Assembly (NCBI GenBank): GCA_947488195.1 | Contig: CANKYR010000008.1 | Coordinates: forward strand, 1 to 40,027 | Reading direction: 5' to 3' | Origin: Flavobacteriales bacterium | Lineage (GTDB): Bacteria; Bacteroidota; Bacteroidia; Flavobacteriales_D; Sanyastnellaceae | DNA length: 40,027 nt | Shown here: one piece after another, positions 3,836 through 7,595 of the stretch | Layout: every line of letters starts with the position of its first letter | How positions within the stretch are numbered: the stretch's first letter is position 1 | Program-made: the position numbers and the translations under genes | The notes under the pieces: model-generated | Told to the model about the DNA's origin: nothing | Database searches by the model: none | What the model saw: the letters and a program-made list of their open reading frames with translations, nothing else

Positions 3836-4675
3836 ATGGGATTTTCTAAGAAAATTTTAGTTCCAGTCGATTTCACTAAGGTGAGCGATATTGCCATTGA
3901 ACATGCGCTTTTGATGGGCAAAACAATTCTTGCCGATATTCATCTGATTCACATTGTAGAAAATAAGAAACAAGTTTCTGAAGCGCGCTTGAAGTTAGAC
4001 GCGCTTAAAGATCGTATTCGTGTTGAAAACAGCGTTGAGATTCACGCTCATGTTCGCATCGGGAACATCTTTGAAGACATAGATAAGGCTGCAACGGAAA
4101 TGGATGCAGCACTTATTATTATGGGGACACATGGGGCTCGCGGTATGCAATTCATGTCTGGAAGCCGCGCATTGAAAATTGTTACTGAAAGTTCTATTCC
4201 TTTCATCGTTGTTCAAGAGAGAACCATTCGTGAGCAAGGATATCACCGTTTGGTTGTGCCATTAGACTTGCACAAAGAAACCAAGCAAAAACTAAGTGCA
4301 GTTCGCGATATCGCGAAGTACTTTAACTCGAAAGTGTATTTGATTTCACCGAATGAAACCGATGAGTTCCTAAAAAATCAACTGGACCGTAATTTAAATT
4401 ACGCCGTAGAATATTTGAGTTCAAAGAACATTCCTGTTGAAGTTGAAATTACTGAAACGAAGTCCGAAGGTTCATTCGTGAAATCGTTGTTGAAATATTC
4501 TGCAGCGGTTGAAGCTGATTTGATTTGTATTATGAATTTCTACGAGAGTTCACTGTTAAATGTATTCAACTCGAGCTACGAACAGCACTTAATCACCAAC
4601 GATGCGCAGATACCTGTGTTATGTGTGAACCCGGTTGACACTTATATAGCAGACCGCTCAAGCCTGGCTTCGTAA
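3836..4675 (+). CDS. Tandem-domain universal stress protein (UspA family)
   Basis: This is a 279-residue cytoplasmic protein with two UspA-like alpha/beta domains in tandem. The first domain (about residues 1-127) starts with KKILVPVDFTKVSDIAIEHA and carries the nucleotide-binding glycine motif GTHGARGMQFMSGS at 97-110. The second domain (about 133-275) begins YHRLVVPLDLHKET and lacks an obvious glycine loop, so only the first half is likely to bind ATP. Proteins of this kind are induced under stress; the biochemical role is not settled. It has its own -7 element and ends only three bases from the converging phosphatase stop, so transcripts from both sides probably overlap. Confidence 0.92.
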   Translation: MGFSKKILVPVDFTKVSDIAIEHALLMGKTILADIHLIHIVENKKQVSEARLKLDALKDRIRVENSVEIHAHVRIGNIFEDIDKAATEMDAALIIMGTHGARGMQFMSGSRALKIVTESSIPFIVVQERTIREQGYHRLVVPLDLHKETKQKLSAVRDIAKYFNSKVYLISPNETDEFLKNQLDRNLNYAVEYLSSKNIPVEVEITETKSEGSFVKSLLKYSAAVEADLICIMNFYESSLLNVFNSSYEQHLITNDAQIPVLCVNPVDTYIADRSSLAS

Positions 4676-4678
4676 TAA

Positions 4679-6145
4679 TTAGATTCGAATTCCGATAACT
4701 AAAAGGTCATCGGTTTGTTCCACTGAACCCTTCCAAGCGTCAAACGTTTCGTGAAGGGTTTTTTCTTGTGCATCTATTTCTAGACTTGATATAGATGTAA
4801 GAATTTCTTTGAATCGCTTTCGCATGAACTTTTTATTGTTCGCTTCGCCAAACTGGTCTGCATATCCGTCGCTGCAGGCGTATACCATATCCTCTTTTTC
4901 CAATTGGAATTTCTTTGTCTCAAAAGACTGACCGCGTTCACCGAAGGTTCCAATGCTTCGCTTGGTTGGAGCCAATTCAATAAGTTCATTCTTTCTAACA
5001 ACGTAAAGTGGAATGTTCGCGCCGCAATATTCCAACATCATTTCCTTTTCATCGATCGCACAAAGTGCAATGTCCATACCGTCTCGAACACCGGTGTTAT
5101 TGTTACGCAGCACCTCTGTACCTAAACGATTAACGCTATTTAGAATCTGTGAAGGATCGAGAAAAACTTTAGTCACGTGATTCAAAAAGTTGTGACCTAC
5201 CAAACTCATGAATGCACCGGGAACACCGTGTCCCGTGCAGTCTGCAGCGGCGAACAATTTCTTTCCACCTACATTCTTAAACCAATAAAAATCGCCACTT
5301 ACAACAGCCTTCGGAACATAAAAAACAAAACTCTTGTTGAAGATTTGTCTTACCGCACCAATGTTCGGTAAGATTGTATTTTGAAGTCTTTGGGCGTAAT
5401 TGATGCTGTCAGTCAAATCGTGATACAACAAATTCAATTGTTCCTTTTGAACATCTGATTCTTCTTTTTGCTTTCTCAGTTTTGTGGTGAAATAGGCAAT
5501 GGCAATTCCCGCGCATAAAACGAACAAAGAAACCACTACAAGAACACCTGTCAAACGAGAGAACTGAACATTCATTTCTTCAATTTCCCTATTCATTCGT
5601 TCTGTTTGCTTTGTGCGCAATTCATTCAGAATAGCCTCTGCTTCTTCAACCACCAGGGGGATTCCACTTCCTTCAATAAAATATGATTCAGCTTCCATTA
5701 ACGCAATTGGATTGCTATAACTATCGAAGGTTGGTAACAGCTCTTGAACCGCCTTGAATTGAATGAGCATGTCTCCAACTTTTCGCTCCAAAGAATCCAT
5801 ACTCTTCTGTTCCTCTGAACTAAAGTTATTCTTGACTTCCTTCAGGCGCAACCATGAATTCATGAGTGAGCTATCACTAATTGCTTTCATTTCCTTACGA
5901 TGCAGATCTTCCTCTACACGTTGCACAAAAGCCCACTCTTTGATTAAATCTTTTGAGCGAAGGGTGTATCCTTCGAGGTCTTGCAAGCGTCCAATTGAAG
6001 GAACATACTTGTCGTTAATTTTCCGATTGATATCATAACTCCGCTGAAGGGTAAGCATAGTCATGACTAAGGTTCCGGCAACTATGAATATAATGGCACC
6101 GAAACCAAATCCAAGACGATGCTTCTTATTGAAGAACCAATTCAT
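4679..6145 (-). CDS. Membrane sensor SpoIIE/PP2C-type serine phosphatase
   Basis: This is a 488-residue inner-membrane protein. A first transmembrane helix lies at about residues 12-33 and a second at about 199-221. Between them is a largely helical periplasmic sensor of about 165 residues, like the four-helix-bundle sensors of chemoreceptors. After the second helix comes a short coiled-coil stretch and a SpoIIE-type PP2C domain (about 245-488). Its metal-binding aspartates sit in SGDFYWF and AAADCTGHGVPGAFMSLVG. Such enzymes dephosphorylate serine/threonine on anti-sigma antagonists or related switch proteins; no partner is encoded nearby. I take ATG 6145 as the start because the in-frame codon at 6154 is TTG. 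It is the last gene of a unit with the TPR and YfiR-like genes, which suggests they feed its sensor. Confidence 0.92.
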   Translation of the reverse strand: MNWFFNKKHRLGFGFGAIIFIVAGTLVMTMLTLQRSYDINRKINDKYVPSIGRLQDLEGYTLRSKDLIKEWAFVQRVEEDLHRKEMKAISDSSLMNSWLRLKEVKNNFSSEEQKSMDSLERKVGDMLIQFKAVQELLPTFDSYSNPIALMEAESYFIEGSGIPLVVEEAEAILNELRTKQTERMNREIEEMNVQFSRLTGVLVVVSLFVLCAGIAIAYFTTKLRKQKEESDVQKEQLNLLYHDLTDSINYAQRLQNTILPNIGAVRQIFNKSFVFYVPKAVVSGDFYWFKNVGGKKLFAAADCTGHGVPGAFMSLVGHNFLNHVTKVFLDPSQILNSVNRLGTEVLRNNNTGVRDGMDIALCAIDEKEMMLEYCGANIPLYVVRKNELIELAPTKRSIGTFGERGQSFETKKFQLEKEDMVYACSDGYADQFGEANNKKFMRKRFKEILTSISSLEIDAQEKTLHETFDAWKGSVEQTDDLLVIGIRI

Positions 6146-6154
6146 GGATTTCAA

Positions 6155-7042
6155 TTAATTTGATTTGAATTTTTTCTCAGACTCTTTTTTCAAACGAAGA
6201 AATTCTTCTTCTCTACCCAAGGCCCTATTCACGAACATAAGCACTTTGTAATTCGTATATGAAGGGGTGCAGGTAGCAAAGGCTTGCTGCGCATAGGGAA
6301 TGGCCGCTTTAAATTTCTTTACGCTTTCGTCTTGAATGGAAATTAAATCCATCATGTCTGTCTGAGCGCCAATTTTCCGAATCATGTAAACACCTTGATT
6401 GTAGTTGACAATAGCCAAGTTCAAATTCGCGGTGCAATTTCTATTATCCAAGGCTAACACTTTAGAGTAGTATTCCAAACACAAAAAATAATGATGGTTG
6501 TCTTCTGTGTTTTTGATCCAATTGCGGTAATGTCCTTCGGCCATTTTACTGTTGAATTCTAAATTCAAATCTTTGAGTTCGACATCTGAACCTTTATAAA
6601 GCTCTTCAAACTTTTTGAATAGGTCAATCGGTTCATTCTCGGATTCGTTATCCATTTCAGCAGAACGTAACAACGCGTCATTGAAATAGGTGAAAGCTAT
6701 GTACTGAAAAGCAGCATCTATGTTTGATGCGAATTCCAAATTTGAATCGAATTCGCGTGCTTTCTTCAAAGCAGCTGCACTTCGGTTTCTGTAGTTACTC
6801 TGGCGTTGATTGGCTTCCTTTTGTTTGTACAGCTCTTTTAAAATAAATCCTTTTACAAACCATGCATTCGGATCTGAGTTCAAACTGGCCAATTTAAAAC
6901 CTTCGTCAATTTGAGCAAGCGCTTCATCATATTTCTTTTCATCGCACAATTCAGCGGCTTTCGCTACAATTGGATTCACTTGACTGTAGCCCATTTGAGC
7001 CACACCAAGTAAAATCAAAAAAAGTAAGAATGTGTGCTTCAT
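6155..7042 (-). CDS. Secreted TPR-like protein
   Basis: This is a 295-residue protein with a clear signal peptide (MKHTFLLFLILLGVAQMGYSQ), so it is probably periplasmic. The mature part is helical. It has degenerate tetratricopeptide-like pairs, for example AAELCDEKKYDEALAQIDEG near the N-terminus and CLEYYSKVLALDNRNCTANL in the second half. ATG 7042 is chosen because it opens the signal peptide; an in-frame extension to 7111 would overlap the YfiR-like gene and bury the peptide. It starts one base after the upstream stop and ends nine bases before the phosphatase ATG, so the three are very likely one operon. TPR folds bind proteins; here it could bridge the YfiR-like protein and the phosphatase sensor, which is inference. 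I do not recognise a named family. Confidence 0.82.
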   Translation of the reverse strand: MKHTFLLFLILLGVAQMGYSQVNPIVAKAAELCDEKKYDEALAQIDEGFKLASLNSDPNAWFVKGFILKELYKQKEANQRQSNYRNRSAAALKKAREFDSNLEFASNIDAAFQYIAFTYFNDALLRSAEMDNESENEPIDLFKKFEELYKGSDVELKDLNLEFNSKMAEGHYRNWIKNTEDNHHYFLCLEYYSKVLALDNRNCTANLNLAIVNYNQGVYMIRKIGAQTDMMDLISIQDESVKKFKAAIPYAQQAFATCTPSYTNYKVLMFVNRALGREEEFLRLKKESEKKFKSN

Positions 7043-7043
7043 A

Positions 7044-7562
7044 CTATTGAACTTTCCATTGTAAAATTTTATTCCCAGGTGTAATTTTCTTCTCAGATAA
7101 AGCGACCTCACTTAATTCGTAGCGAATAGAATTATCTACTGTTTTGAAATTAATGGCCGCCCCACTGCCGAGCGCTCCCTCCCAGTTTGTGACAACCAAG
7201 GTGCTCTTCCCTTTCACCTCTTTCATTATTTTCTGCAGATCAGATTTTTTCGACTTGTCTATAAAAACAATATGACTACTTACCCCTGCCTTGTATTCAG
7301 ACCATGCAACAACTTCAATCGTCTGTGCACCTACTGGCTTCATTCCATATTTCTCCACAACATGCTTATAGACGGCGTCATTTCCATACACAACAATGAG
7401 AAATTTTCCTTTCTTCATTTCAACAGGCCAATTGCTATTCACCGCAAACTGATAAATAAAATTTGCTTGAATCATCGCACGCGAATCTCCCTCGTCTAAC
7501 TGCTGCGCAGAAAGCCACTGGCTTGAGGCCAAAACAATGAGGAGTAAAACGATTCTTTTCAT
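7044..7562 (-). CDS. YfiR-like (DUF4154) periplasmic protein
   Basis: This is a 172-residue protein with a signal peptide (residues 1-19, ending LSAQ). The mature part matches the YfiR/DUF4154 pattern: a MIQANFIYQFAVNSNWP opening block, then FLIVVYGNDAVYKHV, a mid-domain SSHIVFIDKSKKSDLQKI, and TLVVTNWEGALGSGAAINF near the end. In Pseudomonas, YfiR is a periplasmic repressor of the diguanylate cyclase YfiN and responds to redox and envelope state. No cyclase is present here; the neighbour is a SpoIIE-type phosphatase instead. It is the first gene of the unit, behind a perfect -7 box. The two cysteines that form disulfides in Pseudomonas YfiR are absent: this protein has no cysteine at all. 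Confidence 0.85.
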   Translation of the reverse strand: MKRIVLLLIVLASSQWLSAQQLDEGDSRAMIQANFIYQFAVNSNWPVEMKKGKFLIVVYGNDAVYKHVVEKYGMKPVGAQTIEVVAWSEYKAGVSSHIVFIDKSKKSDLQKIMKEVKGKSTLVVTNWEGALGSGAAINFKTVDNSIRYELSEVALSEKKITPGNKILQWKVQ

Positions 7563-7587: not shown

Positions 7588-7595
7588 CAAATCTA
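7588..7595 (-). promoter_or_regulatory. -7 promoter element of the YfiR-TPR-phosphatase operon
   Basis: On the minus strand this reads TAGATTTG, a perfect TAnnTTTG match, about 25 bases before the YfiR-like ATG at 7562. The nearest upstream TTG, at 7613-7611, leaves a 15-base spacer, shorter than the usual 17-20. Confidence 0.5.

What the first reader, a model, noticed from the sequence alone, without database searches (positions are those of the whole stretch)
4679..7562. YfiR-like protein, secreted TPR protein and SpoIIE-type phosphatase in one unit
In Pseudomonas, YfiR represses the cyclase YfiN from the periplasm. Here the only membrane output protein in the unit is a phosphatase with a helical periplasmic sensor, and a TPR protein lies between. 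This suggests a three-part envelope sensor that controls a serine-phosphate switch instead of c-di-GMP. The YfiR-like protein also has no cysteine, so redox sensing by disulfides is ruled out.
Basis: inference. Interest (0 to 1): 0.5.

Follow-up and report, generated by a model that had tools for sequence, protein, structure and literature searches.

The report
YfiR–TPR–phosphatase envelope signalling unit
Three neighbouring genes in a Bacteroidota bacterium probably encode one cell-envelope sensor that switches a protein phosphatase, where the best-known relative of its first part controls a c-di-GMP-making enzyme; the same trio recurs in most of the related genomes searched, and the paper searches made here found no description of it.

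Summary
In detail: YfiR-like (7562-7044), secreted TPR (7042-6155) and membrane SpoIIE/PP2C phosphatase (6145-4679) genes lie head to tail, 1 and 9 bp apart. The unit is strongly conserved: 81 of 87 YfiR-like loci fetched from 86 relatives have all three genes in this order; three more are cut by contig ends. Starting from the TPR gene, 32 of 32 loci have YfiR and 27 the phosphatase. In 120 related genomes the phosphatase's helical sensor occurs almost only with YfiR/TPR, and one relative fuses YfiR to the phosphatase. Outside the order, 21 of 34 YfiR loci have a histidine kinase instead.

The phosphatase domain is SiaA-like (Z 32.7; next 24.0). The genome has SiaC with the NTSS phospho-site and a SiaB-like kinase, so a phospho-threonine switch on SiaC is likelier than a classical STAS phospho-serine switch; STAS and RsbW-like genes also exist. 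In eight relatives, and a ninth across a contig break, an adenylate-type cyclase gene follows the trio, a possible output. The window's genus lacks the HAMP region. The no-cysteine point covers YfiR only; the TPR protein has four. Substrate, ligand and sign are untested.

The parts
7044..7562 (-). YfiR/HmsC-like (DUF4154) secreted protein, 172 aa, signal-peptide-like start, no cysteine; first gene of the unit
   Evidence: PF13689 7e-22; TOL_0243 YfiR-like model 7.5e-23 but under its cut-off; 0 Cys
6155..7042 (-). Secreted TPR-like helical protein, 295 aa (ATG 7042; ORF open to GTG 7111), signal-peptide-like start ending at invariant Q21, four Cys
4679..6145 (-). Membrane PP2C (SpoIIE-type, SiaA-like) phosphatase, 488 aa from ATG 6145 (TTG 6154 also possible); lacks the HAMP region found in the relatives outside its genus
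   Evidence: PF07228 8.8e-21; SiaA model over the catalytic part 3.2e-49; SiaA-PP2C 6k4e Z 32.7; A3 alignment
6053..6115 (-). TM1 of the phosphatase, about residues 11-31 (boundaries judged by eye from sequence and model)
5555..6052 (-). Periplasmic helical-bundle sensor, about residues 32-197; holds W71 (codon from 5935; invariant in A7) and S142-Y143 (codons from 5722; in 90% or more of rows)
5489..5554 (-). TM2, about residues 198-219 (by eye), followed by a helix without HAMP
5360..5455 (-). Helix before the PP2C core, residues about 231-262, with the SIxYAxRxQxxILP motif; SiaA has a similar stretch in the printed alignment
4682..5344 (-). PP2C catalytic core, residues 268-488; SGDF (5299), DxTGHG (5242), DG (in SDGYADQF, 4873) and DD (in TDDLLV, 4714) motifs intact
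7588..7595 (-). TAGATTTG, a match to the Bacteroidetes -7 motif TAnnTTTG (consensus recalled), 33 bases before the YfiR ATG; present before yfiR in all seven genus loci printed
3836..4675 (+). Universal stress protein gene, convergent, 3 bp from the phosphatase stop; conserved neighbour, not shown to be part of the mechanism
   Evidence: convergent Usp next to the phosphatase in 45 of 76 trio loci with at least 500 bp beyond it

Best explanation
The three genes make one envelope signalling unit. Secreted YfiR-like and TPR proteins form the signal-sensing part in the periplasm and act on the helical-bundle sensor of the membrane phosphatase. The signal passes through TM2 and the helix before the PP2C core to set phosphatase activity. 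The phosphatase most likely works like SiaA: it removes the phosphate that a SiaB-type kinase puts on the SiaC threonine (NTSS motif), and dephosphorylated SiaC then binds and activates a target. In some relatives the target may be an adenylate-type cyclase encoded behind the trio; in the window's genome it is unknown. Shown here: gene order, conservation, signal-peptide-like starts, SiaA-like catalytic domain, presence of SiaC and a SiaB-like protein. Inferred: the complex, the substrate, the direction of control, the ligand.
For: Trio in 81 of 87 YfiR-like loci fetched from relatives, 3 more cut by contig ends. Reciprocal search from the TPR: 32 of 32 with YfiR, 27 with the phosphatase downstream, 2 of the other 5 at contig ends. 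Sensor profile: E below 1e-20 in 83 of 87 YfiR-positive genomes; the four misses are two contig ends, one kinase type and the fusion. Of 33 YfiR-negative genomes 4 are that strong, and 3 of these carry the TPR beside the phosphatase with the contig ending before YfiR (negatives partly by subtraction because the lists are cut). YfiR domain fused to the phosphatase in G117 (L128), and YfiR divergent to a sensor-phosphatase in G082 (L127). SiaA-like catalysis: 6k4e is the only PDB sequence hit at 0.01 (5.3e-27); Z 32.7 against 24.0 for the next entry; SiaA model 3.2e-49, against 2.9e-4 and 1.6e-20 for the two other SpoIIE proteins found in the genome. SiaC in the genome (3.1e-36) with YFNTSSSK; compare LLYLNTSSIK around T68 of P. 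aeruginosa SiaC (passages of PMC7647112). SiaB-like protein over its cut-off. SiaC in 85 of 88 trio genomes against 18 of 32 others; SiaB family in 87 of 88 against 20 of 32 (E 0.001; counted by hand; one of the 18 and several SiaB matches are under the families' cut-offs).
Against: No SiaB or SiaC hit in the flanks of the 87 loci (about 2.5 kb up, 4.5 kb down at most), so the substrate link rests on catalytic similarity and on co-occurrence, which follows kinship. In this genome siaC has lost the neighbouring siaB that relatives have; the remaining SiaB-like protein is a lone gene with a modest score (92.8 bits). The full-length SiaA cut-off (700 bits) is missed widely (165.9). Some SiaBC clusters have a SiaA-like TPR-phosphatase of their own (L214 by family scans, L215 partly by resemblance), so other phosphatases may serve SiaC, and SiaA-type catalysis alone does not single out the trio. 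G091 has the trio followed by a DUF4175-like and an RsbW-like gene (L231; both named by resemblance). L173, L178 and L179 have YfiR and TPR without an adjacent phosphatase. G077 has a weaker sensor-phosphatase with no YfiR or TPR nearby. No complex was predicted.
Confidence: 0.6

Rival explanations
1. Same three-part sensor, but the phosphatase acts on the classical STAS protein and so frees or binds the RsbW-like kinase, a phospho-serine partner switch.
For: One STAS protein with a DSSG motif (C15) and one RsbW-like kinase over the cut-off (C1) exist in the genome; in G091 (L231) the trio is followed by a DUF4175-like and an RsbW-like gene, and the window's genome has what looks like the same gene pair elsewhere.
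Against: The catalytic domain is closer to SiaA than to RsbU or SpoIIE by sequence and structure. The genome's other SpoIIE protein L132 is much less SiaA-like (2.9e-4) and is the better candidate for STAS. The DUF4175-like gene was hit in 1 of the 87 loci scanned.
Confidence: 0.2
2. YfiR and the TPR protein are a periplasmic pair with a job of their own (for example assembly or binding of an envelope component), and the phosphatase is kept beside them by synteny only.
For: Three loci, from Fulvivirga and two records titled Cytophagales, keep YfiR and TPR without an adjacent phosphatase (L173, L178, L179). The wider neighbourhood (ferritin-like gene, Usp, oxidoreductase) is also syntenic in many relatives.
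Against: Fusion of YfiR to the phosphatase (L128), a divergent YfiR-phosphatase pair with other neighbours (L127), overlapping or touching genes, and the sensor being almost never found without YfiR/TPR. The flanking genes vary while the trio stays: ferritin-like on the same strand in 54 of 78, Usp in 45 of 76.
Confidence: 0.12
3. YfiR directly represses a diguanylate cyclase elsewhere in the genome, as in YfiBNR, and the phosphatase is secondary.
For: YfiR family membership; in Pseudomonas YfiR acts on YfiN (passages of PMC4655355).
Against: No GGDEF motif showed among the ORFs of 100 aa or more in the 34 loci fetched from the phylum sample; histidine kinases are the commonest neighbour. A GGDEF search of the window's genome was not made.
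Confidence: 0.04

Closest known systems
YfiBNR (YfiR-YfiN-YfiB) of Pseudomonas aeruginosa
   Same: Periplasmic YfiR-family protein with an inner-membrane signalling enzyme and a third envelope protein
   Different: Output is a PP2C phosphatase, not a GGDEF cyclase; the sensor is a helical bundle with no CHASE8 match in the Pfam scan; the third protein is a secreted TPR-like protein, not an OmpA-like lipoprotein; no cysteine pairs
SiaABCD threonine partner switch of P. aeruginosa (SiaA phosphatase, SiaB kinase, SiaC, SiaD cyclase)
   Same: SiaA-like PP2C catalytic domain; SiaC with the NTSS site and a SiaB-like protein in the genome
   Different: Phosphatase encoded with YfiR and TPR, not with siaBCD; different N-terminal part; no SiaD-type gene next to it; eight relatives (nine with one inferred) have an adenylate-type cyclase behind the trio
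YfiR-like/histidine kinase pairs (NCBIfam NF053591 TOL_0243 and NF053592 HK_near_YfiR_like)
   Same: YfiR-like gene next to, or fused with, a membrane transducer
   Different: Kinase output; CHASE8 in 3 of the 4 neighbours scanned by Pfam (one of the four truncated); no TPR gene seen
RsbU/SpoIIE-RsbV/SpoIIAA-RsbW/SpoIIAB partner switches of Bacillus
   Same: PP2C phosphatase opposing an anti-sigma-type kinase
   Different: Other sensors; phospho-serine on STAS (recalled); no YfiR

Membership tests
YfiR/HmsC-like (Pfam DUF4154) | Score over the family's gathering cut-off | tested here: met
   78.5 bits against 24.9
YfiR equivalog (NCBIfam NF053586) and YfiBNR system | Score over the equivalog cut-off | tested here: not met
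   15.2 bits against 85
YfiR equivalog (NCBIfam NF053586) and YfiBNR system | Conserved Cys71-Cys110 and Cys145-Cys152 pairs | tested here: not met
   0 Cys in the window's YfiR; 32 of 73 relatives have none and 24 have one after residue 22
YfiR equivalog (NCBIfam NF053586) and YfiBNR system | Membrane diguanylate cyclase (GGDEF) partner in the unit | tested here: not met
   The partner is a SpoIIE-type phosphatase
YfiR equivalog (NCBIfam NF053586) and YfiBNR system | OmpA-like YfiB in the unit | tested here: not met
   The third gene is a secreted helical TPR-like protein; no OmpA match in the Pfam scan
SpoIIE-type PP2C phosphatases (PF07228) | Score over cut-off and conserved Asp motifs | tested here: met
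   75.2 bits against 25; SGDF, DxTGHG, DG and DD invariant in both alignments
SiaA (NCBIfam NF038263, equivalog) | Full-length score over cut-off | tested here: not met
   165.9 bits against 700; only the C-terminal part matches
SiaA (NCBIfam NF038263, equivalog) | SiaA-type catalytic domain | tested here: met
   3.2e-49 over the domain; 6k4e Z 32.7, rmsd 2.1, 242 aligned
SiaABCD partner switch | SiaC with the phosphorylated threonine motif in the genome | tested here: met
   C29:15175, 124.5 bits; YFNTSSSK
SiaABCD partner switch | SiaB-family kinase in the genome | tested here: met
   C46:12877, 92.8 bits against 85; lone gene, not next to siaC
SiaABCD partner switch | Phosphatase gene linked to siaB/siaC | tested here: not met
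   0 SiaB/SiaC hits in the flanks of the 87 loci; in G103 and G092 a siaB-phosphatase-siaC cluster lies 5-6 kb away, beyond a cyclase gene
SiaABCD partner switch | Phosphatase removes phosphate from SiaC | not testable with these tools
   Needs biochemistry
SiaABCD partner switch | GGDEF cyclase SiaD in the genome | not tested

The most novel reading that the evidence does not exclude
A periplasmic YfiR-TPR receptor controls a SiaA-type phosphatase and, through the SiaB-SiaC partner switch, a class III adenylate cyclase: an envelope-to-cAMP pathway in Bacteroidota built like SiaABCD but with both the cyclase type and the sensor swapped. In eight relatives (families f3, f9, f10), and in a ninth (f11) across a contig break, the cyclase gene follows the trio on the same strand; in the four linked cyclases printed the catalytic domain is preceded by a transmembrane segment and a long coiled-coil-like stalk, the kind of part that SiaC grips in SiaD. 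The window's own genus would be a reduced form, without the linked cyclase gene and without the phosphatase's HAMP region.
Probability: 0.25. Interest if true: 0.75.

Novelty: new variant of a known kind. Interest (0 to 1): 0.55.

Why it matters
YfiR is known as the periplasmic brake of a c-di-GMP cyclase. Here YfiR-family proteins appear as general periplasmic sensor parts that can be coupled to a phosphatase, a kinase or (in one locus) a GAF-PAS protein. If the phosphatase acts on SiaC, this gives Bacteroidota a membrane input for their common SiaB-SiaC genes, about whose input and output in this phylum the paper searches made here found nothing. It also offers a simple test system: three adjacent genes, a catalytic domain with a solved relative, and a likely substrate with a known phospho-site.

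Tried and rejected
Pfam and NCBIfam name the TPR protein poorly; the PDB sequence and fold searches return generic TPR superhelices and, lower down, BamD, so no function was read from its fold.

A first YfiR profile picked up phosphatases because the L128 fusion had been aligned whole; it was rebuilt without ORFs over 300 aa, and the counts come from the rebuilt one.

A missing sensor match there says nothing.

The scan of the 87 loci for SiaB, SiaC and RsbW gave no hit, for the DUF4175-like gene one. Two of the nine hits with the G103 cyclase protein, L079 and L080, proved not to hold a cyclase domain (HD only in L079, nothing over threshold in L080) and are not counted as linked cyclases.

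Distance correlations between the three proteins (r 0.74-0.89) are expected from shared descent and not used as evidence of contact. That call used 73 of the 81 trio loci; the other eight were dropped by the filter for complete phosphatase ORFs without X.

A second sensor match in G052 (C32) was checked at the end: TPR and phosphatase, contig ending before YfiR, 89% identical to the first G052 copy over 3.6 kb. A weak second match in G074 (1.1e-14, with a stop) and four weak ones in genus g11 (1.2e-8 to 6.6e-6) were not followed. In G081 the trio contig ends after the sensor and a cyclase opens contig C72 (L230); this fits but is not counted.

Names given by eye, without a family scan: ferritin-like, methyltransferase, ABC transporter, KBL, DUF4175-like, TonB-like receptor, and RsbW-like in L231.

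Literature searches with no hit: YfiR+SpoIIE+tetratricopeptide, YfiR+SpoIIE, YfiR+histidine kinase+Bacteroidetes, YfiR+tetratricopeptide. DUF4154 and DUF1987/DUF6272 gave one paper each, both on Pseudomonas. SiaC/SiaB/Bacteroidetes/SpoIIE, partner switch/Bacteroidetes/PP2C/adenylate cyclase and SpoIIE/Usp/ferritin/Flavobacter listed no title about this unit; of the papers in those three listings I opened only PMC9239204 (passages). The library holds open-licence papers only.
Full report
What is there. The window is contig C8 of a 2.19-Mb, 159-contig draft genome (85% complete). The named loci that carry the same genes are Bacteroidota by title but for one, 15 of 32 titled Flavobacteriales. On the minus strand lie a YfiR-like gene (7562-7044), a secreted TPR-like gene (7042-6155) and a membrane phosphatase gene (6145-4679). 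YfiR's stop is followed after one base by the TPR ATG; the TPR stop is 9 bp from the phosphatase ATG, or next to a TTG at 6154. The upstream oxidoreductase gene (PF01266) ends 88 bp before yfiR. A TAGATTTG site, matching the Bacteroidetes -7 motif (recalled consensus), sits 33 bases before the yfiR ATG and is present in all seven genus loci printed; in L048 it is visible in the printed sequence but was missed by the position scan because the called ORF start lies further upstream. The inner junctions were not scanned for such sites.

Is it more than chance? YfiR-like genes occur in 87 of 120 genomes, the window's own included. I fetched 87 loci, every place but the window's own, from 86 genomes. 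With a clean YfiR profile, 81 have YfiR, TPR and phosphatase in the same order and strand; L046 and L057 end before the TPR gene and L090 inside it; L126 is a different type (TonB-like receptor and hybrid-kinase neighbours, read from the sequences); L127 is a second YfiR of G082, divergent to a phosphatase; L128 is a fusion. Gaps to the first possible start are short: median -16 bp for YfiR-TPR and +6 bp (range -44 to 135) for TPR-phosphatase, n = 81. The scan from the TPR protein in named genomes gave 32 loci: all 32 have a YfiR gene beside it and 27 the phosphatase downstream; L154 and L169 stop at the contig end; L173 (Fulvivirga), L178 and L179 (titled Cytophagales) have YfiR and TPR alone, in the order TPR-YfiR in the last two. 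The 13 new ones all have YfiR and 9 of them the phosphatase (L169 a contig end; L173, L178, L179 without).

The sensor goes with YfiR and TPR. A profile of only the phosphatase's N-terminal sensor (A7) matched 91 of 120 genomes at 1e-5, 87 of them below 1e-20. Of these 87, 83 are among the 87 YfiR-positive genomes. The four YfiR-positive misses are G008 and G072 (contig ends), G078 (kinase type) and G117 (fusion). Four YfiR-negative genomes have a match this strong: G043, G051 and G066 show TPR next to the phosphatase with the contig ending before YfiR; only G077 has a weaker sensor-phosphatase (3.9e-28) without them. A second copy in G052 is again TPR-phosphatase cut before YfiR. The negatives are partly by subtraction, as searches list only part of the genomes without a match.

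Fusion and swapped outputs. In G117 a 617-aa protein joins a signal-peptide-like start, a YfiR domain (PF13689 9.2e-16), a coiled-coil-like stretch, a TM segment and a SpoIIE domain. In a sample of 247 genomes of the phylum, 29 have a YfiR-family match, at 37 places. I fetched all 35 places other than the window and G013, as 34 loci. None has the TPR gene, and 21 have a histidine-kinase-like ORF fused to or within two genes of YfiR (20 by motif, L202 by Pfam). Four such neighbours were scanned by Pfam: HAMP in all four, CHASE8 in three (L180, L202 and the truncated L208; not L184). In L191 (G263) the gene after YfiR aligns with positions 2-353 of the trio phosphatase profile (3.9e-64), that is sensor and HAMP region, but ends in GAF and PAS domains. 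So YfiR seems to travel with the sensor, and the output varies; this rests on one locus for that sensor type.

What the phosphatase is. Its catalytic part is SiaA-like: the only PDB sequence hit at 0.01 is 6k4e (5.3e-27), the SiaA PP2C domain. On the predicted model VIA-align gives 6k4e Z 32.7 (rmsd 2.1, 242 aligned), then the RsbU domain of Rv1364c 24.0 and RssB 23.1. The NCBIfam SiaA model scores 3.2e-49 over this part; the two other SpoIIE proteins found in the genome score 2.9e-4 (L132) and 1.6e-20 (L133, response-regulator type). The full-length SiaA cut-off is not reached. As controls against over-reading, other Bacteroidota SpoIIE proteins also match this model well, among them the phosphatase between siaB and siaC in G103 (7.6e-57) and second phosphatases near the trios of L174 and L176, on the other strand (3.2e-48, 1.2e-49). 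The catalytic motifs are intact. In Bacillus PP2C phosphatases a switch element in the catalytic domain couples regulation to activity, and similar dimer contacts are reported for SiaA (passages of PMC8080068), which makes the helix between TM2 and the core a plausible signal path (inference).

HAMP loss. The seven complete phosphatases of the window's genus among the fetched loci are 488-491 aa; the other 69 complete ones are 585-645 aa. The alignment of 26 shows that the difference is the HAMP region and the following linker; Pfam finds HAMP in L050 and L086 and not in the window's protein. L127 lacks it too. The sensor and core are kept, so here the signal must pass without HAMP.

Likely partners. 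The genome has one SiaC (C29, 124.5 bits) with YFNTSSSK, as in 10 of the 11 other SiaC proteins printed (L214 has YFNSSSAK). In P. aeruginosa SiaB phosphorylates and SiaA dephosphorylates SiaC T68 within LLYLNTSSIK (passages of PMC7647112). Unphosphorylated SiaC binds the helical stalk of the cyclase SiaD and activates it; the authors suggest that DUF1987 proteins commonly modulate adjacent proteins (abstract and passages of PMC8457831). In several relatives siaB and siaC are neighbours beside a methyltransferase-like gene; in the window's genome siaC is there but siaB is not, and a lone SiaB-like protein is on C46 (92.8 bits). Counting by hand, with G043, G051 and G066 placed among 88 trio genomes: SiaC in 85 of 88 against 18 of 32 others (one of the 18 under the family cut-off); SiaB family in 87 of 88 against 20 of 32 (E 0.001; 94 of all 107 positive genomes are over the cut-off). 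The Fisher test used the earlier split (82 of 85 against 21 of 35, p 1.3e-6) and ignores kinship, so this is weak evidence. Classical partners exist too: one STAS protein (DSSG motif read) and one RsbW-like kinase over the cut-off.

A cyclase behind the trio. In eight genomes a class III cyclase gene follows the phosphatase on the same strand: G092, G097, G098, G102, G103, G115 and G118 with 2-197 bp between (first possible starts), and G074 with two genes between (coordinates; gene maps). In G082 the phosphatase is split between two contigs (sensor positions 2-90 on C96, 89-230 on C9), and on C9 two genes and then a cyclase follow (L238), so the link is inferred. In G118 the cyclase is in two ORFs. 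Propeller, cyclase and HD parts were each matched in G074, G097, G102, G115 and G118 and by Pfam in G103; G092 and G082 match the G103 protein as a whole; G098 has cyclase and HD only. PF00211 is found in all nine genomes at these places. The motif EKIKTIGD in the three linked cyclases and the window genome's own cyclase that were printed fits adenylate cyclases (residue rule recalled). The four linked cyclases printed have a TM segment and a long coiled-coil-like stretch before the catalytic domain (by eye). In G103 and G092 a siaB, TPR-phosphatase, siaC cluster lies just beyond. Against a firm link: PF00211 occurs in 81 of 120 genomes, with and without the trio, and in G117, where YfiR is fused to a phosphatase elsewhere, ferritin-like, cyclase and Usp genes lie together with no trio between (L232), so the cyclase may belong to the place rather than to the trio. 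The window's own genome has one cyclase match, a 420-aa protein on C18, away from the trio. None of the nine is in the window's family f1.

Verdict. The refinement is a SiaA-like phosphatase with SiaC as the likeliest substrate, a sensor that keeps company with YfiR/TPR, and a possible cyclase output in relatives. The redox argument covers only YfiR. Nothing about ligand, sign or contacts has been measured. I found no paper describing the combination in the searches named under Tried and rejected, which cover open-licence papers only.

Noticed in passing
window 3836-4675: A universal stress protein gene is convergent with and 3 bp from the phosphatase gene; the same arrangement is kept in 45 of 76 trio loci with enough flank.
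   Followed up: partly
upstream of yfiR in relatives, e.g. L051, L055, L225: A ferritin-like gene (named by eye) lies upstream of yfiR on the same strand within 900 bp in 54 of 78 trio loci; it was not found in the six window-genus loci with enough flank.
   Followed up: partly
L128:3127-4977: YfiR domain fused to a SpoIIE phosphatase in one protein (G117).
   Followed up: yes
L035, L129 (window genome C29): SiaC gene keeps its ABC-transporter-like and methyltransferase-like neighbours but has no siaB gene beside it, unlike relatives.
   Followed up: partly
several relatives, e.g. G014:C12, G024:C95, G039:C23: Two SiaB-type matches in one ORF of about 370-400 aa, sometimes next to siaC.
   Followed up: no
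L055, L060, L063: The TPR gene is doubled in tandem between yfiR and the phosphatase gene.
   Followed up: no
L172: A record titled Candidatus Saccharibacteria carries the trio; probably a misassigned Bacteroidota contig (inference).
   Followed up: no
L231 (G091): Trio followed by a DUF4175-like gene and an RsbW-like gene, apparently the same pair as on C1 of the window's genome.
   Followed up: partly
L187, L188, L212: YfiR-like genes, doubled in L187, with no recognised transducer next to them.
   Followed up: no
L232 (G117): Ferritin-like, cyclase and Usp genes together with the trio missing from between them.
   Followed up: partly
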